Shown here: positions 1 through 37,555 of the stretch, in pieces
How positions within the stretch are numbered: position 1 is the first letter of the stretch
Layout: each line of letters starts with the position of its first letter
IMG/VR virus record: IMGVR_UViG_3300046001_002688
Location: 1 to 37,555 of that record
Source: a virus
Direction: 5' to 3' (one strand)
DNA: 37,555 bases
Notes under the pieces: generated by a model
Told to the model about the DNA's origin: nothing
What the model saw: the letters and a program-made list of their open reading frames with translations, nothing else
Databases searched by the model: none
Position numbers and translations under genes: made by a program

Positions 1-664
1 TTAGCGAGGTGTCAGTGCCGACCGTGGCGGGAAGGTTGACGATAGACAGGCCGGTTGACAGCGTGTTGGTGGCGACTTCAATTGAGCGCCAAGCGTTCGC
101 GGCCATAACGCCCGCCGACAGCATAAACACGCGGCCTGAGAGAATTTCGTAACCGTCGCCCGTCGCAGGCGTAAACGTCAGCGGCGCGTTCAACGTAATG
201 GTTGGCGTGGCGCTTGCCGTGTTGCCGACGATATAGCGCTCTTCAACCTTACCAGCGGCTTTGCCAATAATGCGAATTTTAAAGCCGTACTCGCCAGAAC
301 CGCCGCGATTGGCGAGCATGTTGAGGCCGACAGCGGTTGGGAAGGCCGTGGAGATGACAACCGAACTGGTCGTGGCACCTGCGGCCAAGACGCCCTTGAG
401 GCCCTGAGACGGTGCAAACACCATTGCCGCGCCAGCACCGAACGTGCCTGCAAGCGCGGGAGATTGGACGAAATTCCAAGCCTTGGAGACGATGTTGTAA
501 CGGTTTAGGACCGTGGCGCTTGCAAGTTGGTAAACAAACGGGTTGCGTGACACGTCAGACCGCAAGTCAGAGCAAACGCAAGTAGCCGCCGCTGTGGCAT
601 TTGGCGTGGGCGACACTTGCACCCACATCTGGCGGTCAATGACCTTTTTGAAGGTGTTAGCCAT
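1..664 (-). CDS. Beta-rich virion structural protein, N-terminal part (cut by left edge)
   Basis: The first 221 residues of a structural protein are present; the rest lies beyond the left edge. The start ATG (662-664) shares one base with the stop of the upstream gene, so the two are probably translationally coupled. It is a close paralogue or allelic copy of the 538-aa protein at 35675-37291: the proteins align without gaps over the shared part and most base differences are silent. The sequence is rich in Gly, Ala, Thr and Val with no catalytic motif, as expected of a beta-sheet virion protein. Its place right after the portal and a repeat protein suggests a head-associated or decoration role. 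That role is inferred; I do not recognise a named family. Confidence 0.8.
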   Translation of the reverse strand, partial: MANTFKKVIDRQMWVQVSPTPNATAAATCVCSDLRSDVSRNPFVYQLASATVLNRYNIVSKAWNFVQSPALAGTFGAGAAMVFAPSQGLKGVLAAGATTSSVVISTAFPTAVGLNMLANRGGSGEYGFKIRIIGKAAGKVEERYIVGNTASATPTITLNAPLTFTPATGDGYEILSGRVFMLSAGVMAANAWRSIEVATNTLSTGLSIVNLPATVGTDTSL

Positions 665-928
665 TATGTAATTCTCGCTCTAACTGTTGCGGCCCACGCG
701 GACACGTTTTGTCCGTTGGTGAGCAATTGAGCCTGCTGACCGCCCATGTTGGTTTGGTTGGTTTGGTTGGTGACCGTGCCGACCGTCGTAACCGTGCCGC
801 TTTCGATCAGCGCCGAGACGCGATTTCGAGCCAAGCCAACGTCATAACCGCGAGGGCTATTCGTGGCGTTCAACAGCCTAAGTAACAGGGTTTGCAAACC
901 ATCCAGCAATTCGGCTGCGGTCGCGTCG
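1..928. repeat. Terminal homologous segment, left copy
   Basis: This segment aligns without gaps to 36628-37555 (constant offset 36627). I counted about 26 differences in the first 180 bases, but 668-792 is identical over 125 bases to 37295-37419. Most differences within the coding frames are silent. Confidence 0.9.
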
Positions 929-1274: not shown

Positions 1275-3563
1275 CTAAACAGTTTCGACGCCGATAGCAC
1301 GTCCGTCTGGGCCGCGAATAATGCGTTTTGATGCCTTCATGGATTGCATTGCATCCTGCATTGTAGCCACAGATTGGTTATGAAGGCTAGAAATTTGATC
1401 GCGGGTCGTCGCTAGCTCTGCCGCCACCTGACTTACCACATCATTGACGCCGCGCATAAGTTCAATGTGCGTGGCCTTTTCCTGCTCTTGTTGCTCAGGA
1501 TCGACGCCATTGTTGGAAGAAATCTTGGCAACCGTAATCTTGGTCGCGGCGTCAAGATCGGCCTTGTAGCGTTCGAACTGCTGTTTTGCCGCCATCTCTT
1601 GCATTTGCAACTGTGCTTCATGCTGCTGGCGTGAGGCTTCCATCTGCTGGGCCAATTGGGCCTTCATCTGCTCAATCTGCGTATCGGCCTGCACCTTCAT
1701 CTGAAGCATCTGCGCGTCGGCTTGGGTCTTGGCCTGCGCGACGGCTTGCGCGGCTTGAGCCTTCGTGGCTTCGGGATCTGCCGGAGGCTGTTGCGCGGCT
1801 TCGGCTGCTTTCTTGGTCATCTGTTGCAAGGCTGCGTCCAAGATGCCCTCAATGGACTTGGCCTGCTTAAAGCCGCCAATGCCAAACTTCATTACCGCGA
1901 CAATGGCCGGGACCATCTCAGGCGACGACTGACCAACCGGCAAGGCTTCACGCATGAAGTTAGACAGTGCTGTCAAAAACTCTACGCGATCTTGCTTAGT
2001 CTGGTTTTCATCAATTTGCACCAGACTATCTGCGGCGATTTCAATGCGGAAAGACCGCAGAGGATCATTTTGCAGCAATTGCATGGCCGCAGGGATCATC
2101 TGCTGATCTTCAGCCGACATCTGATCCGCAGCGGCGTATTTCAGGATTGTCTCAGGCTGGAATTTAGAACAGATAATTTGCGCTTTAAGGCGTAGCAATT
2201 CGCTGGCAAACATAGCCACGCCGTCTTGCATGGCGCGTAGGCGTAGGCCGGCATACTGGCCTTTGATCTGCTGGGCTGTCGCGGTCTCTGACGCCACGGA
2301 TTGGCCACGGATAATGTCAGAGATGCCCGTGATATCGTAGATTTGGCCCTTGATCTGCTGCTGGGCTTGGTAGCACTGAAGCAGGGTAGCGGCGATGTCG
2401 TTGATAGGCAGGATGTCAATGGACCCCTTGAGGCCACCTTTTTCACTGAACGCCATCCATTTATCGACGGGAATAAGGGTGTTGTTGTCGCCTTCTGTCA
2501 ACAGACGCTGCAAAGCGGGCTGAGACTGGTCATACACGCCTCGGACGCGCAGGGCCTTGACCAGACCGTCAATACGGTCAGTCAGGATGTCCATTTCGTT
2601 AGCCTGGTCCTGATAAAGGACGAAATCAGGCACGGGGACAAGCGTATCGCTGGTGGTCGTGGCGTACAGGGGCTTAGGGCATGGGAAAAAGCCCTCAAGC
2701 TCCAAGGGATCATCGCGCTCGTCTAGGAAGTTTTGGTAATCCTTGCAGATCCAGTAGACCTTGCCGGATTCCTTGTCCCAAAGCTCGCAAACCTTGGCCT
2801 TGTCGTTGTTTTGGCTGTTCTTGTTGCCGCCCCATTGGTCGGGTGACGTGTCAAAGGAGATTTTGCTGGCCACTTCGGGTCCGAACCGCTCGGTAAGCGA
2901 TTCCTTGGACATATAGACCCAGCGCCAAACGCAAGTGACCTCTTCCCACGTCCGCGCAGAGGAATGACCAAAGTCCTTCCAATGCACATAGTCGGTCGGG
3001 GAGCATTCGTATTCAATTTCTTCAACGGGTTCGGGCGCGGCTGTGAAGTCGCCGGGATCTGATCCCATGCCGGCCATCGGGTTTAATTCGGAGGCGTATT
3101 CTTCGCCTTCGGATTCGACGTCTTCGGTGATCTGATAGCCGTCTTCCGGCACGTCAACGGTTTTGATATGCGGGTCGTAACGAACCCATGCAATACCACG
3201 TCCACCAAGGAAACGATCCTCAACAGAATTCTTCATGGCCGACCGGAAGTCGGGATAGTGCTCAATCTCGTAGTCCAGCGCACGTTCGATCAAAAGGGAC
3301 GCAACGCGCCCTACCTGATCGTTGTCGCCAAAACGCCGTGCCACGTCAGCCTTGGGCATACGGGCATAAACGGCGGGTACTAGGGTCTGGACGTTAGACC
3401 ATAGCACGTTGAACTTAGCGGTTTCCCCACCTGACGCCGTGCGTGTGTCATCGCGGTAGCGGCGGACAATCTTAGTTACCCGCGCATCCCACTTCTTAAA
3501 CTCATTGTCATAGGTGCTAATGACATTGAGCCACTTTTGCACTGGCGTTTGAGGAAGGTCCAT
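1275..3563 (-). CDS. Portal protein
   Basis: This 762-aa protein forms the dodecameric ring at the capsid vertex through which DNA is packaged and ejected. Length and position (two genes after the large terminase) fit a P22-type portal. The first half resembles that family: an N-terminal helical region with aromatic clusters, an acidic stretch near residues 150-185, and a segment near residues 380-430 typical of the portal clip/stem (GISDIIRGQSVASETATAQQ). From about residue 575 to 690 the chain is almost entirely Ala, Gln, Lys, Glu and Met and should form a long coiled coil, like the barrel extension of P22 portals. Start ATG follows an AAGGA-type ribosome site. Identity is strong from context; subfamily is less certain. 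Confidence 0.93.
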   Translation of the reverse strand: MDLPQTPVQKWLNVISTYDNEFKKWDARVTKIVRRYRDDTRTASGGETAKFNVLWSNVQTLVPAVYARMPKADVARRFGDNDQVGRVASLLIERALDYEIEHYPDFRSAMKNSVEDRFLGGRGIAWVRYDPHIKTVDVPEDGYQITEDVESEGEEYASELNPMAGMGSDPGDFTAAPEPVEEIEYECSPTDYVHWKDFGHSSARTWEEVTCVWRWVYMSKESLTERFGPEVASKISFDTSPDQWGGNKNSQNNDKAKVCELWDKESGKVYWICKDYQNFLDERDDPLELEGFFPCPKPLYATTTSDTLVPVPDFVLYQDQANEMDILTDRIDGLVKALRVRGVYDQSQPALQRLLTEGDNNTLIPVDKWMAFSEKGGLKGSIDILPINDIAATLLQCYQAQQQIKGQIYDITGISDIIRGQSVASETATAQQIKGQYAGLRLRAMQDGVAMFASELLRLKAQIICSKFQPETILKYAAADQMSAEDQQMIPAAMQLLQNDPLRSFRIEIAADSLVQIDENQTKQDRVEFLTALSNFMREALPVGQSSPEMVPAIVAVMKFGIGGFKQAKSIEGILDAALQQMTKKAAEAAQQPPADPEATKAQAAQAVAQAKTQADAQMLQMKVQADTQIEQMKAQLAQQMEASRQQHEAQLQMQEMAAKQQFERYKADLDAATKITVAKISSNNGVDPEQQEQEKATHIELMRGVNDVVSQVAAELATTRDQISSLHNQSVATMQDAMQSMKASKRIIRGPDGRAIGVETV

Positions 3564-3575
3564 GTGGCCTAGTCC

Positions 3576-3887
3576 TTAAGCAGAGAAGATACCAACAGCC
3601 AGAACCTCGACGCCTGCGCCGGTCGTGACTTTCCACGCTCCGGTGGCCGATGCGGCGTTAATTTCGATGTTGTAGACATTGATGCCCGTGCCTGCGCTAA
3701 CCGGCAAGATTGTGTGGGTAAACGCCCCGTCGATAAGGACGACGTTTCCGGTCGCAGCGGCTGACACGGTACAGACCAAGCGATGAAGGTAGTCACCAAC
3801 TGCGCCAGTGCCGCCAAGAACCCGTGCGGACGTGCTGACTGGCACATGCTCATATTGATAACGATATGGACTGGAAATTCCGCTCAT
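3576..3887 (-). CDS. Small late protein between large terminase and portal
   Basis: This 103-aa protein is rich in Gly, Ala, Val and Thr and has alternating beta-type segments (for example the GTGINVYNIEINAAS region). Its ATG overlaps the TGA of the large terminase gene in the four bases ATGA, so translation is probably coupled. The portal begins 12 bases downstream. Composition resembles small capsid decoration or stabilisation proteins, but I do not recognise a named family and the role is inferred from position only. Confidence 0.75.
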   Translation of the reverse strand: MSGISSPYRYQYEHVPVSTSARVLGGTGAVGDYLHRLVCTVSAAATGNVVLIDGAFTHTILPVSAGTGINVYNIEINAASATGAWKVTTGAGVEVLAVGIFSA

Positions 3888-5221
3888 ATTCTTGTCCTTT
3901 TAGCTCTGCGCTGGGTGGCCCACATGTCATTTAGCGTAACAGTGTTGCCAGGTCCAACAATAAGAGGCTTCTCTACGTTACTTGCCATTGCGGTAGGCTC
4001 TGATCGCCATGCGATTGCAAGCATTCTCATCGCATCCGCAGGATGTGAACACCAATTATGTTTAGGTGTAGCACGAAATGCCTTTTTGTCTTCATCGTAT
4101 TCGCGTTCGTACTGTCTGAGCGCCTCAATGCCGTCCGCGCACTTGCGTTCGTCAAAATAGCAGCGCGGCAGAACCTGTCTGACCGCCTGAATGCCGTCCT
4201 GCACCGATAGGTCAGGCACAATACGAAGGTTCTGAAAGCCCAAATGGTCGGCAAGTTGCTCGATGACGGACTTGCCCTGCGCGGCTAGGGTTTTGGCGCG
4301 AGCGTCATGCGGCAGATAGTGCGTCCCGTAGTGATAAGGGCGGCTTTTGACAACATCCGCCAAATCCGAGATGGATGCGCCAGACACTGCATGAAAATCA
4401 ATAACGTGAATTTCGCCTCGAACCACCTGATACCACCAAATTGCCGTGTCATCGCGATACCCCAGGTCCCATGCCGTGTGCGTCGGCAGGCTTTCGTCAT
4501 ACGGCACAGATCCAATCCGCTTGTCATCCGCCGCCACGCGCATCTCTACGCCGTAGAACGCGCCAAGGATAGCCGCCTCGAAGCTGCACTCGTACTCCTG
4601 CATATACTGGTCTTCGGAGATCTGGGCCTTGACGGCGTTAATTTCGGACATGGGCAGGATGCCGCTCTGCGTCGCCGTCAGCCTCAGACAAAACCATTCC
4701 TCCGGATTCATCTTGGCCGTCTGGTAAATATCCCAGAACTGGTTCTTGCCCTTGGGCGTACCCCCGAACACCGCCCAGCCTTGCTTGTCAGATAATGTGG
4801 GTCGAATAACCGATCCCCAGACGGACGGACGAAAGTCCCCGTACTCATCCATGTAGATCCCGTCAAAGCCCAAGCCGCGCATCGCATCAGCATTGTCCGC
4901 GCCGAACAGCCTGATCTTGGCCCCCGTGATTAGCTCTACGGTAAGCTCTGCCTCGTTGGCGGATTTCATAATGGGCTTGGCAAACCGCTTGATGTAATCC
5001 CATGCCACGGACTTGGCCTGACTGCGGTACGGCGCGATGTACCCAAACAAGGGATTGGGCGACTTGCACATGACCGCCGCCCGTATGATGTCGTTGACGG
5101 CGGAGACGGTCTTGCCGGCGCGGCGGTGAGCCACCAAACATGCCCACCGCTGCTTACGATTATGGAAGGGCATAAACGCCTCTCGCGGCGCGTATGCAAT
5201 CTTTACTTCTCTAGTGACCAT
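3884..5221 (-). CDS. terL: Terminase large subunit (packaging ATPase and nuclease)
   Basis: This 445-aa motor protein pumps DNA into the prohead and cuts concatemers. The ATPase half shows a Walker A motif VAHRRAGKT (30-38), a Walker B strand IYMDE (122-126) with catalytic glutamate 126, and a GGTPKG coupling motif (153-158). The C-terminal RNase-H-like nuclease half shows the expected acidic residues in AWDLGYRDD (Asp252), YLPHDARAK (Asp306) and HPADAM (Asp396). Length is usual for compact terminases. Its start lies inside the small terminase gene (19-base overlap) and its stop overlaps the next gene. The gene looks intact. Confidence 0.97.
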   Translation of the reverse strand: MVTREVKIAYAPREAFMPFHNRKQRWACLVAHRRAGKTVSAVNDIIRAAVMCKSPNPLFGYIAPYRSQAKSVAWDYIKRFAKPIMKSANEAELTVELITGAKIRLFGADNADAMRGLGFDGIYMDEYGDFRPSVWGSVIRPTLSDKQGWAVFGGTPKGKNQFWDIYQTAKMNPEEWFCLRLTATQSGILPMSEINAVKAQISEDQYMQEYECSFEAAILGAFYGVEMRVAADDKRIGSVPYDESLPTHTAWDLGYRDDTAIWWYQVVRGEIHVIDFHAVSGASISDLADVVKSRPYHYGTHYLPHDARAKTLAAQGKSVIEQLADHLGFQNLRIVPDLSVQDGIQAVRQVLPRCYFDERKCADGIEALRQYEREYDEDKKAFRATPKHNWCSHPADAMRMLAIAWRSEPTAMASNVEKPLIVGPGNTVTLNDMWATQRRAKRTRI

Positions 5222-10943: not shown

Positions 10944-11131
10944 CCTTCAGGACCGTCGAACAGCTTCAGGCCCAGATCGCCAGTCTGACCAGAGAGAACG
11001 AGCGGCTGCATCAAGCCATTGTCGATCACATAGAAGGGCATGATTGGTCGTGGGTTGACCCCGTATCCAGAGGTTATCCAGACGTGGACGATCTCCGCGC
11101 CGCCCTACAGCCCAAGGATGGGGAGGGATGA
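10940..11131 (+). CDS. 63-aa coiled-coil protein
   Basis: Residues 6-32 show a heptad-like pattern (VEQLQAQIASLTRENERLHQ) and should form a coiled coil. The C-terminal 11 residues (RAALQPKDGEG) are identical to those of the next protein because a 37-base DNA repeat covers the ends of both genes. Start and stop both use ATGA overlaps. Function is unknown. Confidence 0.6.
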   Translation: MTFRTVEQLQAQIASLTRENERLHQAIVDHIEGHDWSWVDPVSRGYPDVDDLRAALQPKDGEG

Positions 11132-11132
11132 G
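11096..11132. repeat. 37-base direct repeat, copy 1
   Basis: This copy covers the last 11 codons and stop of one small gene and the ATG of the next. It is identical to 11467-11503. Confidence 0.9.
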
Positions 11133-11502
11133 TAGTCAGGCAAAAACTTTGCATGATCAACTGGAACAGATTGGCGGCTGCGGCGATGGGTCCTGCATCG
11201 TTCACGTTCGCCCCGGTATGCACACAAATGGCGGGTGTCGATGTAATCGCGAGCCTCACAAAATGTCGGCGGTCATCTACTGGCACAAGCGGGCGGTCGC
11301 GGAGCAGGCGCAACAGATCGAGCGGCTGCGGGAGGTGATAATGGAAGTGACTGTCAGCTTAATAGCATGTCACTCTTTGCTTAGTCGTGGGGGGAAGCGT
11401 GCCGCAGCATCAAACAAAATGTTTGAGATAATGCTGTCGGATTACGAAAAAGCTATTGAGGTTGGACGCGCCGCCCTACAGCCCAAGGATGGGGAGGGAT
11501 GA
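11128..11502 (+). CDS. 124-aa Cys-containing coiled-coil protein
   Basis: The N-terminal half has CGDGSCIVH and a CRC motif plus several His, so it could bind zinc. Residues about 50-72 look helical with a Gln/Glu/Arg pattern (EQAQQIERLREVI). The last 11 residues copy the end of the preceding protein. It is linked to both neighbours by ATGA overlaps. I recognise no family. Confidence 0.6.
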   Translation: MSSQAKTLHDQLEQIGGCGDGSCIVHVRPGMHTNGGCRCNREPHKMSAVIYWHKRAVAEQAQQIERLREVIMEVTVSLIACHSLLSRGGKRAAASNKMFEIMLSDYEKAIEVGRAALQPKDGEG

Positions 11503-11503
11503 G
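11467..11503. repeat. 37-base direct repeat, copy 2
   Basis: Identical to 11096-11132 at a 371-base offset, and in the same position relative to a gene end and the following start codon. The unit between the two copies is exactly one gene long. Confidence 0.9.
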
Positions 11504-11762
11504 CCAATGCAGTGAGTGCGGGACTGACCAAGGCGTCATGAAATTCCTTGATACCTGGCTGTGCAAGCCTTGCGCTTGGCTGGGACTGCATGACGAACCC
11601 GAACCACCGCCCGTCGAATCGCCCGACTATCCCAGATGGGCGATGGCGGAGGCCAAGCGCCGGGGGGATTCGGAATATTACAGCAACCTGAATAAATCCA
11701 GAAAAAGCCACAAAGGCTGGCCCAAGGGCAGATTAAGGAAACCGAGAAGTGAAAACGCCTAA
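11499..11762 (+). CDS. Small zinc-finger-like protein
   Basis: This 87-aa protein carries CSEC (4-7) and CKPC (22-25), a two-pair arrangement typical of small treble-clef or zinc-ribbon proteins, with a basic C-terminal tail (KSRKSHKGWPKGRLRKPR) likely to touch nucleic acid. It overlaps both neighbours. Function is unknown. Confidence 0.65.
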   Translation: MSQCSECGTDQGVMKFLDTWLCKPCAWLGLHDEPEPPPVESPDYPRWAMAEAKRRGDSEYYSNLNKSRKSHKGWPKGRLRKPRSENA

Positions 11763-12342
11763 TTTCGAATGGACGCAGGACGCCATCGACAAGATTTTAA
11801 AGATGTACCAGCACGGCGACACCGCCAGCCAGATTGCCAAGGCCCTAGGCCAAGGTCTGACCCGCAACGCCATCATTGGCAAGCTAAACCGCCTGAGAGA
11901 CAAGGGGCTGCGCCCTGAGTTAGCCCTAGGCGTCATATCGTTCAAGAAGGCCCAAGGCCAAAAGATCAACCGGATTAACGCGGCCAAGCTAGCGACGCCA
12001 TACCATGCCAAGCCCAAGGCCGTTCTGTTTCAGTTTCCTAAGCCAGTACTCAAACCCAAGCCAGTGCAGGAGGTTATCGTGGTTCAAGAGCCTACGGGGG
12101 AACACGCGGCCATATTGGCGAACCTTCGCCCGCGAGGCTGTAAATGGATTGTTGAAGACTTCGCATTAGGCCAAGCGGATGAGGCGCTTATGTGCGGGGA
12201 ATTAAGATCCGGCGAGCATTCATATTGCGAGCATCACCGACGCATGGGTCTAACCACGCTGTCGGCTGCGCGACTCGCGGCCAGTGACCGAGGGCTGCGC
12301 CGCCTAGGCGTATGGGCCACCAATAAAGTGTACGGCTCTTAA
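11749..12342 (+). CDS. gcrA: GcrA-family cell-cycle regulator homologue
   Basis: Starting at GTG 11749, this 197-aa protein has the GcrA layout. The N-terminal DNA-binding domain reads FEWTQDAIDKILKMYQHG (6-23) then SQIAKALG...LTRNAIIGKLNRL (27-49). A low-complexity Lys/Pro linker follows, and then a C-terminal domain with CKWIVEDF (131-138), Cys149, Cys160 and His163, as in the sigma-70-interacting part. In Alphaproteobacteria GcrA binds near methylated GANTC sites and recruits sigma-70 RNA polymerase. A phage copy could redirect host transcription or time phage genes. The family call is confident; the phage role is inferred. Its stop overlaps the convergent phosphoesterase gene by four bases. 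Confidence 0.88.
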   Translation: MKTPNFEWTQDAIDKILKMYQHGDTASQIAKALGQGLTRNAIIGKLNRLRDKGLRPELALGVISFKKAQGQKINRINAAKLATPYHAKPKAVLFQFPKPVLKPKPVQEVIVVQEPTGEHAAILANLRPRGCKWIVEDFALGQADEALMCGELRSGEHSYCEHHRRMGLTTLSAARLAASDRGLRRLGVWATNKVYGS

Positions 12343-20787: not shown

Positions 20788-23475
20788 TTAAACATAAAAC
20801 CCATAATTCAGAATGCGGTTATACAACTGCCGCGCCCTTGTTCCATAATTGATTTTACCCGCGTTGTAATCTCGCAAAGATGCCGTCAAGGCTCCGCCGC
20901 CGGTTCCGCTTTCCATGTACGAAAACATTGAGTACAGCTCGTGTCCGTCAACATAAGTATCGCTAATGGAAACTTGTCTAACAAGGCGGTCATATGATGC
21001 GGGATAGGGGCCAAGCAAAGCGCCGCCAACCGATCCGTCAATTTGCCAATTTTCATTGATGGCGGTGTAGGTAAGCGATTGCACTCCAGGCAGGGCTTTG
21101 GCGACCTCAAAAACCTGATTCCATGCCGAAAAATGCTCATCAATTTGTACCAAGGTTGTTGGTTGTCCTAACAGGTAGCCATAAACATTGGTGGCGTAGT
21201 TTAGGCCATATCCCAAACTGTCTTGGAATGTGAACAGATTGACCCCAGACGCTTTGATAGCGGCAGCAGTGGCCGCAACATTGTATTGAATCAATCCGCC
21301 GTTTGACGAATAGGCCGCAAAGCCGCTTGTGTTAAGCGGTGCAGTTAGCGCCGCGTCGGCGTAAAGCTGGAATTGCGTGCTGCTGATGTCACCAACATAA
21401 TAGGTGATGTTATTCAGCGCCGCCCATGCGCCTGTGAAGCCAGATGGGGTAATGGCATCGCCGCGATTAAAGTAATGGGATGCAGCCGAAAGCACACAGA
21501 TTGAAGCCGAGGTTGCCCCCGTGACAACCATTGCTTTAGAGAACGATGGCGTATCAATTGGAGAGGCTGGAGAAATATTCACCGGCTTTGCGTAACTGGT
21601 TAGCGATGCGTACCCGCCCAATCCAAGCGTGACCAATGGCGTGAAGAAATATTTTGTTTGTCGGGTAACGTGAGTTGGTTCATGACTAATGTAGAAACCA
21701 CCAAACGAAGCATTTGAACCATATTGAGAAATCAGATCAGCCGCGACTTTTTGTGACGCAACCATTGATTGATAGGCGCGGTTGAGCACTGACACAGTTG
21801 GGCGGAATGCACCATTTGCCACTTGGCGAATTTGCCAGTTTCCAGATGCGATTGTTGCGGTGCTAAATGGGGTGATTATAACAATCGAGACAGACGTGCC
21901 GCTATTATACCCCTTAATGATGGCGCGACCGACGCCGTTCGTTTCAAATATTTCTTGATAAGTGTTTCCGACAAGAAATGCTGAAAGCGCGGATGTTCCG
22001 GTGGTGACGGTCCATGCAGGGCTTGTCAAAGCAGAACCAGTCCCGGTAAGCGTCGTCGAAGGCGATGAAATCAAAGTGCCTGGCAAAGCGCCAAGTGTCG
22101 CACCGCCAACCGTTGCAATGTTCAAAATATCGTTCAGAACCGGCGTGTCTGAATTTCTGCCAAGACCGATATAGAATTGTTGATTGTTCGCCGTGCAGGC
22201 GGTGAGCAAGGTTTGAACAAGGTCCATGCTGTCGCACGTTCCGCCAAGGCTAACGTAGCCTGCGTTAATCGCGTCGCGCCAATAAAAACCAAATCGGCTG
22301 GTTTCGTAATCCCACGGGAACTGTCTCAGTTCCCACGCATTCGCCGTCCAGGTTGAGGACGCAAGCGGACTGGTCGAAACGGAATCTGCGGGAACTGAGG
22401 TTACGCCATAAACGATGGAGCTTATGTCTACTGATACGGTGCTGTTGCCGCTTAGGATAATTGCACTGACAACCGTAGTGCTGGTGTAAGCGGTAATGAA
22501 AGCCCGATAAACAGTTGTTCCGCTGCGCAAAATAAGAATGCTGCCAACGTCACCGGCTTGGAAGAACGCTGCTCCAGCCGTTACCGTGGTTGCTGCTGAC
22601 GGAGTAGATGTGGCTGTAAAAGTTAAGGCAACCGTACCGGGGCGGGTGTAGAACGTTGGATTATAGAACCAATAACCTTGATACTCAATGTAGTCCGTCG
22701 TTAAGCGCGAAATCCCAAGTGCCGCAGCATCGTTTGCAATGCCCGTGACCGTCGCCTGCGTCATTGCTGGAATGCCGGATGAGTTTTCGTAAACCAAAAG
22801 CCCCGGCGATAGATTGAGAAATTCCAGCCAAGTTGCAACTGGTTGAATTTTGCTAGCGGGCCTTGCTGCCGCCATAACAAAATTTGTGCCATTGGATGTC
22901 AAAACGTATCCATTGGTTCCTGCCGAAGTCAGCCCTGTGCCGCCCTGCGAAACGCTGAGAGGCGTTGTTAGGCCGGTAAGAGACGTGATGTCGCTATTGG
23001 CCCCAGACGAAGCGGCACTAAGATTGGCCCGCGCTCCTGTTGCCGTTGTCGATCCTGTACCGCCGTAAGCAACGGCCAAAGCGGTAGTCAAGCCAGTAAG
23101 GGATGTAATGTCGCTGTTGGCCCCCGAAGAAGCCGCGCTAAGATTGGTTCTCGCCCCAGACGCGGTAGTGGCTCCCGTGCCGCCGTAGGTAACGGCAAGG
23201 GCATTACTCAGCGTCAATGTGGAGATGGTGGCAACATTGTTAAAGGACAGTGCATCGCCCGTGGACGTTGGTACGCCCACGTTGGTGAGCTTGAACGCCC
23301 CCATCTTGATGTTGGCGGTCGGCGTCGATTGCCCGTCCTTGGTCAAGGTGTTTGTCAAGCCAGACGCCAAGTCAGCAGTTAGCAGATTGAACGCCGAGGA
23401 CGTGATTGTCGTATTGGGTACGACGGGCTGTCCTGTCGTGTTAATTTGGAATATGCCGGTGCCGTTAAAAGACAT
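20788..23475 (-). CDS. Tail fibre with C-terminal glycosidase-like domain
   Basis: I start at ATG 23473-23475, which shares one base with the upstream stop (TGATG); the residue before it is TTG. The 895-aa protein begins with typical tail-fibre repeats (LxVxYGGTGxTTAxGARxNLSAASSGANSDITSLTGL, twice), about residues 95-190. The middle is beta-rich. From about residue 400 there are sequences resembling a TIM-barrel DUF4434-type fold: DLVQTLLTACTANNQQFYIGLG, then FGGFYISHEP. A host-surface polysaccharide hydrolase or receptor-binding role is inferred. Only this one large fibre gene is visible. Confidence 0.75.
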   Translation of the reverse strand: MSFNGTGIFQINTTGQPVVPNTTITSSAFNLLTADLASGLTNTLTKDGQSTPTANIKMGAFKLTNVGVPTSTGDALSFNNVATISTLTLSNALAVTYGGTGATTASGARTNLSAASSGANSDITSLTGLTTALAVAYGGTGSTTATGARANLSAASSGANSDITSLTGLTTPLSVSQGGTGLTSAGTNGYVLTSNGTNFVMAAARPASKIQPVATWLEFLNLSPGLLVYENSSGIPAMTQATVTGIANDAAALGISRLTTDYIEYQGYWFYNPTFYTRPGTVALTFTATSTPSAATTVTAGAAFFQAGDVGSILILRSGTTVYRAFITAYTSTTVVSAIILSGNSTVSVDISSIVYGVTSVPADSVSTSPLASSTWTANAWELRQFPWDYETSRFGFYWRDAINAGYVSLGGTCDSMDLVQTLLTACTANNQQFYIGLGRNSDTPVLNDILNIATVGGATLGALPGTLISSPSTTLTGTGSALTSPAWTVTTGTSALSAFLVGNTYQEIFETNGVGRAIIKGYNSGTSVSIVIITPFSTATIASGNWQIRQVANGAFRPTVSVLNRAYQSMVASQKVAADLISQYGSNASFGGFYISHEPTHVTRQTKYFFTPLVTLGLGGYASLTSYAKPVNISPASPIDTPSFSKAMVVTGATSASICVLSAASHYFNRGDAITPSGFTGAWAALNNITYYVGDISSTQFQLYADAALTAPLNTSGFAAYSSNGGLIQYNVAATAAAIKASGVNLFTFQDSLGYGLNYATNVYGYLLGQPTTLVQIDEHFSAWNQVFEVAKALPGVQSLTYTAINENWQIDGSVGGALLGPYPASYDRLVRQVSISDTYVDGHELYSMFSYMESGTGGGALTASLRDYNAGKINYGTRARQLYNRILNYGFYV

Positions 23476-25719: not shown

Positions 25720-26627
25720 TACCTTGCTCCTAAAATCTTTCCGGACATTCCAGGCCCAAACTTTGCATCAAAATCTTTTGCAAGATTTGGATTTGCTTTC
25801 AAGTGTTCCACTGCGGAACGAGGAATTGCCCTAGTTAATATTGGAACACCACCTTCTATGGTGGCATAGCTTTGACCTTCAGGATCATAGGTGGGTTGTG
25901 GATTTTTGGTTAGGGTATTTTCATAGCCGCCCTGAGCAAGGGCCGAGATCTTGTCTTCGTTACCCGACGCAAGCGCCGCCCGCCACGCCATAGGATCAAC
26001 TCCCTTGGGCGGCTCTGAGCCAAACATCTTTGCCACGCGAGCGGAATCATAGTCTTTTTCTTGCCGCTGTTGTGCCGAGGCATAAAGCGGCGAGAAGATT
26101 TTTTGATTGTACTCGTTGTCGCTAAGGGCGGCTTGTTGTGCAAAGTTGGCCCGCTCTTCAGGAGACATAACAAGCTCTGGCTTGTCGGAATATAGCTTCT
26201 GCGCCTTTAGGTTCATAGACGCAGGAATGGCCTGTCCGCCTGCACCAGCTTGAAGGGCTTGAGCAATTTGTTGCGGCTTGTCGGCATTAAACACAGGCAC
26301 CCGCGTATCGAGGGTGGCGGCTGGCATTTCTCCAGCAGGCTTAAGTTCCTTGGCATTATATTCTTTTAGGTTTGAAAACGCCTCTGCGCGCTTTGCCTTT
26401 TCAAGATCCGTGGCCCCCTTTGCGCCCTTGGCTTCCATGTACGCGCCCATGCCCATTTGCAGGGCCTTGCCGAGGCCCGCCAATGGCGAAATTGGGGCTT
26501 GAATTCCGTTGTACTCAAAAACCTTTTCAGGCTCCATTCCCTGCTGCTGCAAGATTTCAGCCAAGCGTTGACGACGGGCGTTTTCTGCGGCTTGAGACGA
26601 AAAATCTGTAAGGCTGATCTTAGCCAT
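25719..26627 (-). CDS. Late structural/internal protein, unknown
   Basis: I use ATG 26625-26627 (302 aa, MAKISLTDFSSQ) rather than an upstream non-ATG start. The N-terminal helix is rich in Ala, Arg and Gln, then there is a small-residue segment (GLGKALQMGMGAYMEAKGAKGA) and a helical remainder. It is the first of three internal-type proteins in transcription order and overlaps the PP-loop enzyme gene by eight bases. Function is inferred from context only. Confidence 0.6.
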   Translation of the reverse strand: MAKISLTDFSSQAAENARRQRLAEILQQQGMEPEKVFEYNGIQAPISPLAGLGKALQMGMGAYMEAKGAKGATDLEKAKRAEAFSNLKEYNAKELKPAGEMPAATLDTRVPVFNADKPQQIAQALQAGAGGQAIPASMNLKAQKLYSDKPELVMSPEERANFAQQAALSDNEYNQKIFSPLYASAQQRQEKDYDSARVAKMFGSEPPKGVDPMAWRAALASGNEDKISALAQGGYENTLTKNPQPTYDPEGQSYATIEGGVPILTRAIPRSAVEHLKANPNLAKDFDAKFGPGMSGKILGAR

Positions 26628-27315
26628 TGGCCCGCTCCAGTGCGTCAAGGGTCGGCTTCAAAGCGGCTTTTAGGGCGCAAATTTTGGCCGAATACTTTTC
26701 GTAAAACTCAGGGTACTTCTCTTTGGTCCACGCGATGCGGTCGGCAGAGTGCGCCATGAACGCTGTACAGTCATAGCAGTCTAGGCTCGTATGTTCAATT
26801 TTGTAATGGTCGGGAAGGAAGCCCCGTTGCGACCGCACAAAATCAAACGTCTGTTTTTCTGTCCAGTCTTCAATTGGCTGAATGAAGGTTATCCCATCGA
26901 CCACCGAACCGTGACGGGCCGGTGATTTATGGGAATCGTCAATGCGCTGACCGCGTATAAGCTCGGTGATCCCGCGCTCTTTAGCGGCCTGCATTAAAGG
27001 CCCAGAGATGTTCTCGTAGCAGCACTGAAGGTAAGGCTGCATCTTGATTTCTTTTTCCCCAGACATGGATTGACCAAAAGGCGTCCAATCAACAGCAACT
27101 ATATCAGACGGAATGCCGTTGGCCTTGGTCTGCGCCTCTTGGTTCGTCATTACTTCAATAAACTCCTTGGCCTCTTTGCGGATTTCCTCAATGAGTTCAA
27201 GGGTTTCTGGATACGCTTTGCCAGTATTGACAAAAATTACAATAGGCTGCTGGTCACGGTACAGGTACCAGCAAGCCATAGAATCCTTACCGCCTGAGAA
27301 CGCTAGTCCCAGCAT
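26620..27315 (-). CDS. PAPS-reductase/DndC-like PP-loop protein
   Basis: This 231-aa protein opens with the PP-loop SGGKDS (7-12) of ATP-pyrophosphatases, followed by VNTGKAYPETL (29-39), a LRGxR-like IRGQRIDDS (120-128), and two Cys pairs: Cys98-Cys99 and Cys180/Cys183 (DCYDC). That Cys arrangement is reminiscent of DndC and related PAPS-reductase-like proteins that handle sulfur or bind an iron-sulfur cluster. It could modify nucleic acid or cysteine pools. Its position inside the structural operon is unusual. No other Dnd genes are seen, so a complete phosphorothioation system is not supported. Confidence 0.8.
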   Translation of the reverse strand: MLGLAFSGGKDSMACWYLYRDQQPIVIFVNTGKAYPETLELIEEIRKEAKEFIEVMTNQEAQTKANGIPSDIVAVDWTPFGQSMSGEKEIKMQPYLQCCYENISGPLMQAAKERGITELIRGQRIDDSHKSPARHGSVVDGITFIQPIEDWTEKQTFDFVRSQRGFLPDHYKIEHTSLDCYDCTAFMAHSADRIAWTKEKYPEFYEKYSAKICALKAALKPTLDALERANG

Positions 27316-32283: not shown

Positions 32284-32286
32284 TGC

Positions 32287-32751
32287 CTAAATCCTTTCTT
32301 GCAAGAACATAGTAGTTTTGTTTAGCTTGATTCTGCTAACCGTTGTCTGATTGATATTAAACATTTCTGCAATTTTTTGTTGAGAATATCTTTCGGCAAG
32401 GAGCTTTTTGATATTTTCAACGTCGGCATAAGTAAGCGTACTTTTGGTTCCGCGTCTACCTTTTGTGTCCATATCTAAAATGTTGTCTTTGCAGTTTCCC
32501 AAAAACAAATGGTCCGCATTAACACATTTTCTATTGTCACATCGGTGAAGAACCCACCTACCTTTTAAAATTGGCCCAACAAACAACTCGTATGAAACTC
32601 TGTGCGCTACGTCTTGCTTTCCCCTAAAGTAAAACTTTCCGTATCCGCCTCTGTTTTTCGTACTTTGCCATTCTATGCAGCCGCTTTCTACCGTTTTTAC
32701 CTTTGCTAGAAACCGTTCTTTTTCATCCGACTTTGGTCTTCCGCCTGACAT
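32287..32751 (-). CDS. Free-standing HNH homing endonuclease
   Basis: This 154-aa protein has an HNH core: AHRVSYELFVG (49-59), VLHRCDNRKCVNADHLFLGNCKDNILDMD (67-95), with His69, Cys71, Cys76 and His81. The region 119-142 (AERYSQQKIAEMFNINQTTVSRIK) is a helix-turn-helix that gives site specificity. The gene is visibly richer in A and T than its neighbours, a sign of recent transfer. It sits between the capsid gene and a decoration-like gene, has its own GGGAGG site, and interrupts neither. Confidence 0.9.
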   Translation of the reverse strand: MSGGRPKSDEKERFLAKVKTVESGCIEWQSTKNRGGYGKFYFRGKQDVAHRVSYELFVGPILKGRWVLHRCDNRKCVNADHLFLGNCKDNILDMDTKGRRGTKSTLTYADVENIKKLLAERYSQQKIAEMFNINQTTVSRIKLNKTTMFLQERI

Positions 32752-32807
32752 ATATGCCTCCCATTAATTACAGGGAAACATATATATCAATGCGTAAGTT
32801 TAGGCAA

Positions 32808-33809
32808 TCACGCTATCAAAACTCCCTGGAACTGAGAACCGGAGCAAGTCATGTTGCCTGCCCAGCCGATCAGTTTCACAATGGCGTCTTGGTTAACCGC
32901 TTGGCGCTCACCGCCAATTGGCACGAAATTGCGGTCGGCGTGAGGACGCCACATCAGGTACTTGGTGTTCAAGAACCACATATGGTTGGCCGTCGCGCTG
33001 GCGCCGATACCGCCGTCGAGAACGACGTCGGAGGCCATGCCCGCACCGTAGTATTTCAGCGAGGCGAAGCCAGCGCCAGCAGCAGTCGAACCGGAGTCCG
33101 AAATGCGCTGAATGGCTTGCAGCGACTGAAGGTACAGACGGTAATAGTTGCTATCCGCAACGATCAGGTCAGGCTTGTCGGTGCCACGGATCAGTTGGAC
33201 GGCCAGAGCATCCATGTAGGATTGGATGTTCGAAGCCGAAACAGCCGAACCGCCATCGGTCACGCCCGAATACTTCAGCGAACGCCAGAAGTTGAACGAG
33301 GCGCGGTTGATGCCGCCGTAGGTGCCGGACGAAGGGGCGTCAGGAACCGCAGCCGCGAGGCCAGTCAGGTTTTTGCCGCTGTTGCCGGTTCCGTCGAGGT
33401 AGATATCGCCACCAAGGCGGTTCTGCAATTGGGCTTCAGCAACATTCATACGACCGTCAAGAAGGTCGATGATTGCTTCCTTGCCGCTGTTCTGGATCAT
33501 TTCGAGGCCCGAAATGGTCACGGCAGCAGCGTATTGGGTGATGCCGAACTGCGCAGCCGAAATAGGCGAATTCTGAGAGACGTTCAGAACTTCGTAGCCC
33601 GAATAGCTGTTGGTGTTGTTGGTGGTGGAATCGTTGTACATGATTTCTTGCAAAATCACGTTACCGCCGGAGAACGTCTTGATGTTCCCACGGTCTTTAA
33701 GGCGACGAAGCAACGCATTGTTGTTCGTCACGTTGTCAGCTAGCTCACCACTGCGGCTTTGGATGTTCGTCGCAATGATGTCGCTGATTGCGCTGTTGGC
33801 GAAGGCCAT
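32808..33809 (-). CDS. Major capsid protein
   Basis: This 333-aa protein follows the scaffold gene and is the main shell protein. It has the usual small-residue N-terminus (MAFANSAISDIIATNIQSRSGELADNVTNNNALLRRLKDRG), the central ...GGDIYLDGTGNSGKNLTGLAAAVPD... segment and a C-terminal WRPHADRNFVPIGGERQAVNQDAIVKLIGWAGNMTC, a pattern seen in podovirus capsid proteins of the HK97-fold superfamily. No extra domain or protease is visible. Confidence 0.88.
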   Translation of the reverse strand: MAFANSAISDIIATNIQSRSGELADNVTNNNALLRRLKDRGNIKTFSGGNVILQEIMYNDSTTNNTNSYSGYEVLNVSQNSPISAAQFGITQYAAAVTISGLEMIQNSGKEAIIDLLDGRMNVAEAQLQNRLGGDIYLDGTGNSGKNLTGLAAAVPDAPSSGTYGGINRASFNFWRSLKYSGVTDGGSAVSASNIQSYMDALAVQLIRGTDKPDLIVADSNYYRLYLQSLQAIQRISDSGSTAAGAGFASLKYYGAGMASDVVLDGGIGASATANHMWFLNTKYLMWRPHADRNFVPIGGERQAVNQDAIVKLIGWAGNMTCSGSQFQGVLIA

Positions 33810-33829: not shown

Positions 33830-34783
33830 TCAAAAACGTTCATTCATGTCATTGAACTGCTCAAGTAACATTGAACGCCTGTCTTGCGCTTTGGTTGTCG
33901 TGCGAACTCCGGGTGTAGAGCTTTTAACGCTGACCGCTGCTGCCTTAGCTGCTTTCGCAGCCCGATTGGCCGACTCTCTTTTTTGGGCTTCCATCTCGGC
34001 TTGTTGGCTTTGCTGGATTTCCTTGAAAAGATCATCGTCAAGGCGGATAGCCTTTTCATAGGCTTCTTCTAGTGTGTTGACAACCCCCGTGTTGAGTAAC
34101 TGGATCATTGTCGGACGCACAGTCTCGAAATGCTCTGCCCCTTGGGCAAAGCTATCAATCTCGGATCTTAGGCTTTCGGTCTGAGCTTCCTCTTGGCGCT
34201 GCTTCCATCCGACCACTTCGCCGCGCACGGCGTTTAGTTCGTTCTGGAGCGCATAGATGGTTGGATCGACGGGGCCGTTCTGGGAGAAGTTAACGCCGCC
34301 CATGTTGACGCCGTACTGCTGCGCGAGTTGCGCGAGGTACGCTTGCTTCTGATCCTGCGGACTGTGGCGCAGGATGTGGTCTGCTTCCATCAATGCCTTC
34401 ACGGCGTCCGTAGGAGCCACGCCCAGCCCCTGAATGGTCTGCATGTAAGGCTCCATAGCCTTTTGCATCTGATCGGCGTACTGGGCCTTGGAGAGAAGCG
34501 GCTCTACACCCTTACGCATTTCCTCTTCACGCTGCCAGGCATACTCTTGCAAGCGCGGATCTGCGGTCTGCCAGGTCTCGTGGAACTCTTTCTTCCAGCT
34601 TGCCGGCGGACGTTTCCAGACAGGCTCTTCTGCCTCTGGCTCTGGGGCTTCTGTAGGCGTATCAGTAGCGGCAGCAATAGGCTCTTCGGTAGGCTGGGCC
34701 ACCTCATCGAACTGCTGCATCAGCATTTCTTTGCGGTCTAGTGGCTCGTTTGTGTCAGTACCGTTAGCTTCTTCGGGGTCCAT
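33830..34783 (-). CDS. Scaffolding protein
   Basis: This 317-aa protein is acidic at the N-terminus (DPEEANGTDTNEPLDRKEM, PTEAPEPEAEEP), has WKRPPASWKKEFHETWQTADPRLQEYAWQREEEMRKG, and a long helical rest rich in Glu, Gln and Ala, with a basic C-terminus. This is the usual shape of scaffolds that guide prohead assembly and then leave. It lies directly before the capsid gene in transcription order. Confidence 0.85.
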   Translation of the reverse strand: MDPEEANGTDTNEPLDRKEMLMQQFDEVAQPTEEPIAAATDTPTEAPEPEAEEPVWKRPPASWKKEFHETWQTADPRLQEYAWQREEEMRKGVEPLLSKAQYADQMQKAMEPYMQTIQGLGVAPTDAVKALMEADHILRHSPQDQKQAYLAQLAQQYGVNMGGVNFSQNGPVDPTIYALQNELNAVRGEVVGWKQRQEEAQTESLRSEIDSFAQGAEHFETVRPTMIQLLNTGVVNTLEEAYEKAIRLDDDLFKEIQQSQQAEMEAQKRESANRAAKAAKAAAVSVKSSTPGVRTTTKAQDRRSMLLEQFNDMNERF

Positions 34784-34791
34784 AGGGGTTC

Positions 34792-35148
34792 CTATCTACG
34801 GAGTTGCTTCAAAATCTGGTTTGCCTGTCGATCACTCATATCGCCAAACTGCCGGTGAAGTGCGATGCGCCGTTCGTTGTCGCGACCTTGCGGCGCTGGC
34901 GGTTTTGATTCCATCTTTTCGTTGCCGACCTCAAAGCAGTTATGGCGCTTGAGATGGTCGCGATGCTGTGATCTGCTGGTAATCATGGAACCGTCTATCA
35001 TGCTTTGATACGGCTCAATGTCGCGGATGACCTGTGGCCCAGTCTGGGCGTCGTTGTCGTGATCGTCACGCATAAAGGTGACTTCGCCATTCTCAATCTC
35101 GTATGCGAGACCCTTGGCATCATAGATCGCCCTATATCTTTTGCTCAT
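34792..35148 (-). CDS. Conserved late protein before the scaffold
   Basis: This 118-aa protein contains IRDIEPYQSMIDGSMITSRSQHRDHLKRHNCFEVGNE (about 41-77), which I recognise as a recurring sequence in small phage proteins encoded between portal and scaffold. The rest is charged and helical. Function is unknown; a DNA- or protein-binding assembly role is possible. Its start overlaps the preceding stop as ATGA. Confidence 0.7.
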   Translation of the reverse strand: MSKRYRAIYDAKGLAYEIENGEVTFMRDDHDNDAQTGPQVIRDIEPYQSMIDGSMITSRSQHRDHLKRHNCFEVGNEKMESKPPAPQGRDNERRIALHRQFGDMSDRQANQILKQLRR

Positions 35149-35492
35149 AGGAGTAACAGAATATCCTCGTCATCCATTTCGACGTACAGGTTCCAGAGCC
35201 GCTCTGTGCGGTCAATATCTGCCAACATCTTGTCAAAGTCAATTTTCTGGGCAGCAATCGTTTTATTTGCCTTTGCGGGTGTTTCCGCAAAAGGCTTAAC
35301 AATGGCTTGAACGGCACGAACCTTGCCCTCAACTAGGCGCTCGTATGCTTCAATCAGATCTTCGCGTTTGAAGGTCTTGGCTGAAATTTCTTTGTCGAAA
35401 ACTTTCTTACGAAAGTCTCCGTCGTGCATATCCATAAGGATAATAGGCGGGGGTATTACCCCGCCTTGGTTAAATAGAAGAAGGAGGCTCAT
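35145..35492 (-). CDS. Small late protein, unknown
   Basis: This 115-aa protein starts MSLLLLFNQGG, then PPPIILMD and an amphipathic helical region (KREDLIEAYERLVEGKVRAVQAIVKPF, DRTERLWNLYVEMDDEDILLLL). The MSLLLLFNQ start is common in small phage structural-region proteins. No function is known. Confidence 0.65.
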   Translation of the reverse strand: MSLLLLFNQGGVIPPPIILMDMHDGDFRKKVFDKEISAKTFKREDLIEAYERLVEGKVRAVQAIVKPFAETPAKANKTIAAQKIDFDKMLADIDRTERLWNLYVEMDDEDILLLL

Positions 35493-35674: not shown

Positions 35675-37291
35675 TTACACCAACACAATCAGTTCTTGAG
35701 CGGTTGTCGATAGGTGGGAAGCCAAGAGCACCACGTCGTAAGTGTCGGTGCCGTCTAGGGCCGCGTAAGCCACCATCCGTTGCCCCAGCGTCGCCGTACC
35801 CGCTTGAATGTTGTCGGTCGCTGTAAAGGGTGACAGCACTCGGTTCTTGACATCAAACCTATGAATTTGGTTAGCGGCAGAGGCGACATAAATGTTCATG
35901 TAGAACATCCGGCCCTCGTTTTCGAAGGGTGCATAAGCGCCGCAAGTGCCCGTTGTGAGCGACAAGGCCCCGTCGTAAACCACGGCGCTAGTCCAAGTTC
36001 CCGCGACGGCCCCCGCTATGTCTAAAACGTCGATGGTTGGCGAACCGTTGGCGCGGAAGAAATAGTTAAAGGATTGGCGAGCATTTCGAGCCGGATCAGG
36101 CTGGATGCCGTAAGAGGGCATCCATGTTCCGCTAACACCGTTGGCAGCAGGGGCCGCGCCAAAATACGTTGTAGACCAAGCGTTGGTCACAATGCTGTTG
36201 GTTCCGTTGCTGATCGTCGTGTCGTTGTAGTTCCAAGTGTAAACCGTCGTCGTGGCGGTAGATCGCCCAAGGATCAGGTTGGGCAGTTCGATGACGTACT
36301 TAGCCGACGATGATGGCGTGACAGCCCAAGCGGCTCCCATCGTGTAGACAGGCGACGGACCAGCCGTGTGTGATGCGATGATCGCCCGTTGACCAACCGC
36401 CGTGACGTTAACCGTGTCCTGCACGATGCGGATTTGGAAGTTTCGATATTCGTTGGCCTTCACGACAGCATCGCCGCCCGTGGCTTGACCTGTGATGCTG
36501 CTAGCGCCCGCAGCGGTCGCAGCTAGTGCGGAGCGAGTGTTTTGGTTTGTGTCATAGACAAACGCACCCTTGACCATGCCCTCACCGGGGCGACAGTCGT
36601 AAGGCGTGTATTGCTCATCAAGCGCCACAAGCGAAGTATCAGTGCCGACCGTTGCTGGAAGGTTGACGATACTTAGGCCCGTTGACAGGGTGTTGGTAGC
36701 AACCTCAATCGAGCGCCAAGCGTTCGCCGCCATGACGCCAGCCGACAGCATGAACACGCGGCCCGACAGGATTTCATAGCCGTCGCCCGTGGCTGGCGTA
36801 AACGTCAGCGGGTTGTCAAACGTAATGGTTGGCGTCGTGCCGAGCGTGTTTCCAACAATATAACGCTCTTCGACCTTGCCAGCGGCCTTGCCGATGATGC
36901 GAATTTTAAAACCAAACTCGCCAGAACCGCCGCGATTTGCCAGCATGTTAAGACCGACAGCGGTTGGAAACGCTGTGGAGACAACGATAGAGGTGATCGT
37001 AGCACCCGCCGCGATGACGCCCTTGAGGCCCTGAGACGGCGCAAACACCATTGCAGCCCCAGCACCGAACGTGCCTGCAAGCGCGGGGGATTGCACAAAG
37101 TTCCAAGACTTTGAGACGATGTTGAAGCGGTTCAAGACCGTGGCGCTTGTCAGTTGGTAAACAAACGGGTTGCGTGACACGTCAGAGCGCAAGTCGGAGC
37201 AAAGGCAAGTCGCCGCCGCCGTGGCATTTGGCGTGGGCGAAACCTGCACCCACATCTGGCGGTCAATGACCTTTTTAAAGGTGTTAGCCAT
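35675..37291 (-). CDS. Beta-rich virion structural protein (full copy)
   Basis: This 538-aa protein is rich in Gly, Ala, Thr, Ser and Asn with many alternating strands and no catalytic motif, as in beta-propeller or fibre-like virion proteins. Its N-terminal 221 residues match the truncated protein at the left window edge almost residue for residue. Its ATG shares one base with the preceding stop. In joined-end order it follows the portal block, so it is probably a head or neck component. A named family is not recognised. Confidence 0.78.
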   Translation of the reverse strand: MANTFKKVIDRQMWVQVSPTPNATAAATCLCSDLRSDVSRNPFVYQLTSATVLNRFNIVSKSWNFVQSPALAGTFGAGAAMVFAPSQGLKGVIAAGATITSIVVSTAFPTAVGLNMLANRGGSGEFGFKIRIIGKAAGKVEERYIVGNTLGTTPTITFDNPLTFTPATGDGYEILSGRVFMLSAGVMAANAWRSIEVATNTLSTGLSIVNLPATVGTDTSLVALDEQYTPYDCRPGEGMVKGAFVYDTNQNTRSALAATAAGASSITGQATGGDAVVKANEYRNFQIRIVQDTVNVTAVGQRAIIASHTAGPSPVYTMGAAWAVTPSSSAKYVIELPNLILGRSTATTTVYTWNYNDTTISNGTNSIVTNAWSTTYFGAAPAANGVSGTWMPSYGIQPDPARNARQSFNYFFRANGSPTIDVLDIAGAVAGTWTSAVVYDGALSLTTGTCGAYAPFENEGRMFYMNIYVASAANQIHRFDVKNRVLSPFTATDNIQAGTATLGQRMVAYAALDGTDTYDVVLLASHLSTTAQELIVLV

Positions 37292-37555
37292 TACGTAATT
37301 CTCGCTCTAACTGTTGCGGCCCACGCGGACACGTTTTGTCCGTTGGTGAGCAATTGAGCCTGCTGACCGCCCATGTTGGTTTGGTTGGTTTGGTTGGTGA
37401 CCGTGCCGACCGTCGTAACAGTGCCACTTTCAAGGATCGCCGTAACGCGGTTGCGGCCCAAGGCCACGTCATAACCTCTGGGGGTGTTGGTGGCGTTCAG
37501 GAGGCGGATCAGCAGGGTTTGCAGGCCGTCTAACAGTTCGGCCACCATCAAATCA
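36628..37555. repeat. Terminal homologous segment, right copy
   Basis: Partner of 1-928. It covers the first 221 codons of the 538-aa structural gene and the last part of the gene before it, in the same order and orientation as on the left. Confidence 0.9.
37291..37555 (-). CDS. C-terminal part of repeat-bearing structural protein (cut by right edge)
   Basis: The frame runs off the right edge; 87 C-terminal codons are present. It corresponds to the end of the 199-aa protein at 664-1263, with the same TNQTNQTN repeat and C-terminus. The last 36 residues are encoded by DNA nearly identical in both copies; further upstream the copies diverge. The true start lies outside the window. Confidence 0.8.
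   Translation of the reverse strand, partial: DLMVAELLDGLQTLLIRLLNATNTPRGYDVALGRNRVTAILESGTVTTVGTVTNQTNQTNMGGQQAQLLTNGQNVSAWAATVRARIT

What the first reader, a model, noticed from the sequence alone, without database searches (positions are those of the whole stretch)
1..928. Diverged homologous ends: tandem structural-module duplication or variant terminal overlap
Positions 1-928 match 36628-37555 in order, strand and frame with no gaps, yet differ at roughly one base in seven in the outer part while the proteins stay nearly the same. A normal direct terminal repeat or assembly overlap would be identical. If the ends are joined, the late genes run in one classic operon and the two copies fall at the same place. 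So either two tandem copies of a two-gene module exist in one genome, or the ends come from two phage variants of a circularly permuted genome of about 36.6 kb.
Basis: partly seen in the sequence, partly recalled or inferred. Interest (0 to 1): 0.75.

Follow-up and report, generated by a model that had tools for sequence, protein, structure and literature searches.

The report
Phage contig ends carrying different alleles
The two ends of this phage contig are two population variants of the same stretch of one circularly mapping genome of about 36.6 kb; they fall in a two-gene virion cassette that phages swap, so the odd 'diverged repeat' is mostly an assembly effect that points to a modestly interesting variable locus.

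Summary
In detail: window 1-928 and 36628-37555 align without gaps, same strand, with 135 mismatches (85.5% identity), mostly at third codon positions, around a 125-bp identical core. The window is a whole virus record, so these are contig ends. Closing the ends reproduces the order terL-portal-B-A-n1-n2-n3-MCP seen with ONE copy of the module in the nearest relative; 31 of 31 related records with gene A hold one copy. Of 45 related records, 18 show terminal overlaps, nine of them inexact, including a 998-bp overlap at 95.4% in another gene. The 86% divergence is specific to an allelic island from mid-gene B to the stop codon of A: synonymous divergence is about 0.5-0.9 there against 0.05-0.19 in flanking genes. 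A/B alleles about 90% alike occur in phages without matching terminase, portal or capsid, so the island spreads by recombination. B looks like an adaptor with a swappable N-terminus; A is a conserved all-beta virion-surface protein (inferred). True tandem duplication is unlikely but needs reads to exclude.

The parts
1..928 (.). left terminal overlap, allele 1 (5' part of gene A and 3' part of gene B)
36628..37555 (.). right terminal overlap, allele 2
668..792 (.). 125-bp identical core (left copy), 3' end of gene B
37295..37419 (.). 125-bp identical core (right copy)
2..664 (-). gene A, allele 1, first 221 codons, cut by the contig end
664..1263 (-). gene B, allele 1, complete (199 aa; N-terminal anchor-like domain, variable-length middle, conserved C-terminus)
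35675..37291 (-). gene A, allele 2, complete (538 aa, all-beta, no family match in PHROGs or Pfam)
37291..37554 (-). gene B, allele 2, last 87 codons, cut by the contig end
1275..3563 (-). portal protein gene (phrog_12082), upstream neighbour of B
3884..5221 (-). terminase large subunit gene
35145..35492 (-). n1, downstream neighbour of A in relatives too
34792..35148 (-). n2, structural-operon gene
33830..34783 (-). n3, structural-operon gene
32808..33809 (-). major head protein (phrog_9953)

Best explanation
The contig is a once-round read-out of a circularly mapping, probably headful-packaged phage genome of 36,627 bp with a single B-A module. Several A/B alleles coexist in such populations on nearly the same backbone, so the assembler could not close the circle there: it ran about 0.9 kb past the full turn, with allele 1 at the left end and allele 2 at the right end. 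The locus is allelic because the C-terminal part of B plus all of A is exchanged as a block by homologous recombination, also with phages whose head genes do not match. Shown: overlap, single-copy synteny, island boundaries, excess synonymous divergence, cross-lineage occurrence. Inferred: the assembly path, headful packaging, and function (B = adaptor whose N-terminus docks on the phage's own head/neck and whose C-terminus holds A; A = conserved beta-rich surface/fibre protein).
For: Whole record with matching ends. Closing the ends gives terL-portal-B-A-n1-n2-n3-MCP, the single-copy order of L086. 31 of 31 records with A have one copy. Relatives with exact 123/127-bp overlaps are 36,829 and 36,825 bp long. 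Inexact terminal overlaps recur: 9 of 45 related records, including 998 bp at 95.4% (46 mismatches, 36 in one codon position) at a different gene and 452 bp at 96.5%. Other contigs also break here: L083 ends in B about 20 bp after leaving the L084 sequence, L009 starts in B, L084 ends in A; L083 and L084 are otherwise 99.9% identical over 6.6 kb. Synonymous divergence is 0.5-0.9 for A and the B C-terminus against 0.05-0.19 for terL, portal, n1-n3 and MCP; boundaries are mid-B and the A stop codon. CheckV reports that terminal repeats often result from assembling short reads of circular templates and cluster at k-mer lengths (PMC8116208); strain mixtures fragment de Bruijn assemblies (PMC11443906).
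Against: The overlap is less alike (85.5%) than any other found in the group (95-100%). No contig in the viral collection continues either end exactly. Reads were not available. The 125-bp identical core could also come from gene conversion between two copies in one genome.
Confidence: 0.88

Rival explanations
1. True tandem duplication of the B-A module: one genome holds portal-B1-A1-B2-A2-n1, and the contig broke inside the unsequenced middle (the rest of A1 and the start of B2).
For: Both copies are intact as far as they go and under purifying selection. The identical core fits gene conversion. Repeats also break assemblies.
Against: One copy of A in 31 of 31 related records; the nearest relatives have portal-B-A-n1 with one copy; copies at 86% identity should not break an assembly by themselves; inexact end overlaps recur elsewhere in other genes.
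Confidence: 0.07
2. Chimeric join: the two ends come from two different but related phages, so the left and right halves of the contig are not from one backbone.
For: The middle of the genome has no independent linkage test here, and the window's nearest contigs (L083, L084, L009) cover only parts of it.
Against: No abrupt composition break was seen. L086 links the portal side to the MCP side on one contig and aligns to both window ends.
Confidence: 0.04
3. Hypermutation of A/B by a diversity-generating retroelement.
For: The locus is the most variable one in the neighbourhood.
Against: No reverse transcriptase in the record; changes are third-position and synonymous, with dN/dS 0.08-0.13.
Confidence: 0.01

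Closest known systems
Terminal overlap of circularly permuted or circular phage contigs (the 'DTR contigs' of CheckV and IMG/VR)
   Same: Both ends map to the same place, and the genome closes with a single copy at the length of its relatives.
   Different: The overlap is 928 bp and 85.5% identical instead of an exact k-mer-length repeat, because two alleles are involved; a test that asks for identical ends of 20 bp or more would miss it.
Modular exchange of phage tail-fibre/adaptor genes
   Same: Recombination boundary after a conserved N-terminal part; the downstream part and the next gene are swapped as a block; neighbours in cyanophages S-CRM01 and B23 are annotated tail fibres.
   Different: A is strongly conserved (81% mean column identity over 35 members), unlike a typical fast-evolving receptor tip; the locus lies between portal and capsid genes in the window.
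Mx8-like head module (Myxococcus phages Mx8/Mx9, Stenotrophomonas phage BUCT555, Bradyrhizobium phage ppBjS10J-1)
   Same: Portal (35-39% identity) and MCP (48-53%) homologues.
   Different: The only annotated phages that matched gene A are Synechococcus phages, not these.

Membership tests
Circularly permuted genome with contig-end overlap | both ends lie at the same position of a circular map | tested here: met
   Closing the ends gives the portal-B-A-n1 order of L086
Circularly permuted genome with contig-end overlap | closed length agrees with closed relatives | tested here: met
   36,627 against 36,706 and 36,698 (records of 36,829 and 36,825 bp minus overlaps of 123 and 127)
Circularly permuted genome with contig-end overlap | overlap sequences identical | tested here: not met
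   85.5% identity; explained by two alleles, so the claim is a variant overlap, not a standard DTR
Circularly permuted genome with contig-end overlap | read pairs join the ends | not testable with these tools
   no reads
Fixed direct terminal repeats (T7 type) | identical repeats at physical ends | tested here: not met
   ends of relatives lie at different map positions
Tandem gene duplication | two copies on one molecule | tested here: inconclusive
   not found in any of 31 related records; reads needed for this genome
Recombining fibre/adaptor cassette | sharp boundary between conserved backbone and divergent block with raised synonymous divergence | tested here: met
Recombining fibre/adaptor cassette | the same cassette in phages with different head genes | tested here: met
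   L003, L007 and L008 carry A at 88-91% aa identity with no terL, portal or MCP match to the window; Synechococcus phages MinM1 and B23 at 61-64%
Recombining fibre/adaptor cassette | protein is on the virion and binds host or partner | not testable with these tools
   position, all-beta model and fibre neighbours only
Diversity-generating retroelement target | reverse transcriptase and template repeat | tested here: not met
   RVT_1 absent from the record

The most novel reading that the evidence does not exclude
B C-terminus plus A is a transferable virion cassette that many otherwise unrelated, mostly uncultured phages (37-kb Mx8-like head phages, 40-65-kb phages, large T4-like cyanophages) attach through phage-specific N-terminal anchors, with allele exchange frequent enough to break assemblies at this locus.
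Probability: 0.55. Interest if true: 0.5.

Novelty: new member of a known kind. Interest (0 to 1): 0.3.

Why it matters
It shows how a complete phage genome can look like a linear fragment because its ends carry two alleles, and that inexact end overlaps can mark recombining loci. In this phage group the locus is an unnamed, conserved two-gene virion cassette (A has no PHROGs or Pfam family) shared across phages with different heads; solving its function would explain what these phages exchange.

Tried and rejected
Exact search for contigs continuing either end found none. Annotated phages had no near DNA match to the first 12 kb. PHROGs and Pfam gave no family for A or B of the window; three B relatives match phrog_5838, virion structural protein. 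No convincing PDB relative of A or B by sequence. The AF2 model of B is poor (pLDDT 66, pTM 0.22) and was not used beyond its rough layout. The A model (pLDDT 79, pTM 0.86) gives weak PDB matches to beta-propeller enzymes with TM-scores of about 0.25, too weak to assign a propeller or sialidase function; one good viral match is an unnamed phage protein (TM 0.88, 37% identity). The tree of A alleles has weak support inside the close group (40-53% at several nodes), so no donor was named. The retroelement idea was dropped.

Full report
OBSERVATION. The window is a complete virus record of 37,555 bp. Its first and last 928 bases align without gaps on the same strand with 135 mismatches. Mismatches concentrate at third codon positions in both reading frames (A 71 of 92, B 25 of 43), and dN/dS between copies is about 0.08 for A and 0.13 for B. 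A core of 125 bases (668-792) is identical, flanked by 14% and 31% divergence.

GENE CONTEXT. All late genes are on the minus strand: terL 3884-5221, portal 1275-3563, B 664-1263, A from 664 to the left end; and from the right end B (cut), A 35675-37291, n1, n2, n3, MCP 32808-33809. The contig L086 (22.7 kb record, about 89-90% identical DNA near the ends) has terL-portal-B-A-n1-n2-n3-MCP on one molecule with one copy. Closing the window at its overlap gives that order. Of 32 related records searched whole, 31 have a match to A and each has exactly one; the exception, L083, ends inside B.

CIRCULAR MAP AND BASE RATE. Relatives with the same head genes and exact terminal overlaps of 123 and 127 bp are 36,829 and 36,825 bp long, and terL lies at different distances from the ends in different records, as expected for circular maps opened at arbitrary points. 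Among 45 related records, 9 have exact terminal overlaps of 22-127 bp, 9 have inexact or slightly offset ones and 27 have none. The strongest inexact cases are 998 bp at 95.4% (46 mismatches, 36 in one codon position; G038, downstream of the MCP gene rather than at A/B) and 452 bp at 96.5% (G050). Diverged end overlaps are thus a recurrent property of contig ends in this group and not of the A/B genes. [quoted passage not shown] strain heterogeneity fragments de Bruijn assemblies (PMC11443906).

WHY THE ENDS DIFFER: AN ALLELIC ISLAND. L083 and L084, from two metagenomes, are 99.9% identical over 6.6 kb; L083 leaves the L084 sequence inside B and ends about 20 bp later, where its last bases resemble the window's left allele. 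L009, from the same metagenome as L083, begins inside B and is 100% identical to L084 over 969 bp. So three other contigs of the near population break in the same two genes. Against these backbones the window is mostly 90-100% identical (96-100% just before the boundary) up to about position 1064 inside B, falls to about 65-90% through the rest of B and all of A (with a length difference in the middle of B), and returns to 94-100% at the stop codon of A. Synonymous divergence from L084/L009 is 0.07-0.19 in terL and portal, 0.05-0.17 in n1-n3 and MCP, and 0.5-0.9 in the B C-terminus and A. A jump in synonymous divergence with low dN/dS means replacement by a long-diverged allele, not fast evolution in place.

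CROSS-LINEAGE SPREAD. A at 88-91% amino-acid identity sits directly after a B gene in L003, L004, L005, L007 and L008, where no terL, portal or MCP match to the window was found (some of these contigs are partial). On DNA level the left allele of A (first 221 codons) is closer to L008 (88.4%), from such a phage, than to L084 (84.6%) on the nearest backbone, though tree support among close alleles is weak. Annotated carriers are Synechococcus phages MinM1 (42.8 kb, 64%), B23 (244 kb, 61%) and S-CRM01 (179 kb, 41%); in B23 and S-CRM01 the gene lies close to annotated tail-fibre genes. Across 30 B proteins the C-terminal part is conserved while the N-terminus falls into several unrelated-looking types and the middle varies in length. 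A has mean column identity of 81% over 35 members and an all-beta model of fair confidence without an informative solved relative.

MECHANISM, SHOWN AND INFERRED. Shown: single-copy synteny, length, recurrent overlaps, island boundaries, raised synonymous divergence, cross-phage occurrence. Inferred: the assembler passed the full turn and stopped where alleles branch; the genome is headful-packaged; B is an adaptor with a phage-specific N-terminal anchor and a C-terminus that holds A; A is a conserved surface protein. The 125-bp identical core may be a recent exchange tract between alleles or a join at shared sequence; this was not resolved.

VERDICT. As an anomaly the finding is largely an assembly effect; the locus behind it is a new example of modular exchange in phages.

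Noticed in passing
window 32284-32800: A free-standing HNH endonuclease gene (32287-32751) sits directly after MCP; the alignments of L009 and L086 skip just this stretch, so it looks like a recent insertion.
   Followed up: partly
window 11096-11132 and 11467-11503: An exact 37-bp direct repeat frames a 124-aa ORF (11128-11502), overlapping its start and stop.
   Followed up: partly
window 11749-12342: A GcrA-like cell-cycle regulator (Pfam PF07750, E 8.6e-18) suggests an alphaproteobacterial host.
   Followed up: no
window 26620-27315: A phosphoadenosine phosphosulfate reductase-like gene lies inside the structural operon.
   Followed up: no
window 22972-23076 and 23092-23196: Two adjacent 105-bp units 77% alike inside the long tail-fibre-like gene.
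   Followed up: no
L101, L112, L113, L132, L139 and record G033 (L200): terL homologues are split at residue about 391 by roughly 0.8 kb; in G033 the frame stays open (726 aa), which suggests an intein.
   Followed up: no
L114, L119, L124, L127 and others: MCP homologues are interrupted near the 5' end or enlarged by about 0.2-0.7 kb, suggesting introns or inteins in the capsid gene.
   Followed up: no
L285/L286 (G038) and L363/L364 (G050): Other contigs with diverged terminal overlaps (998 bp at 95.4%, 452 bp at 96.5%) are probably complete genomes with allelic ends.
   Followed up: partly
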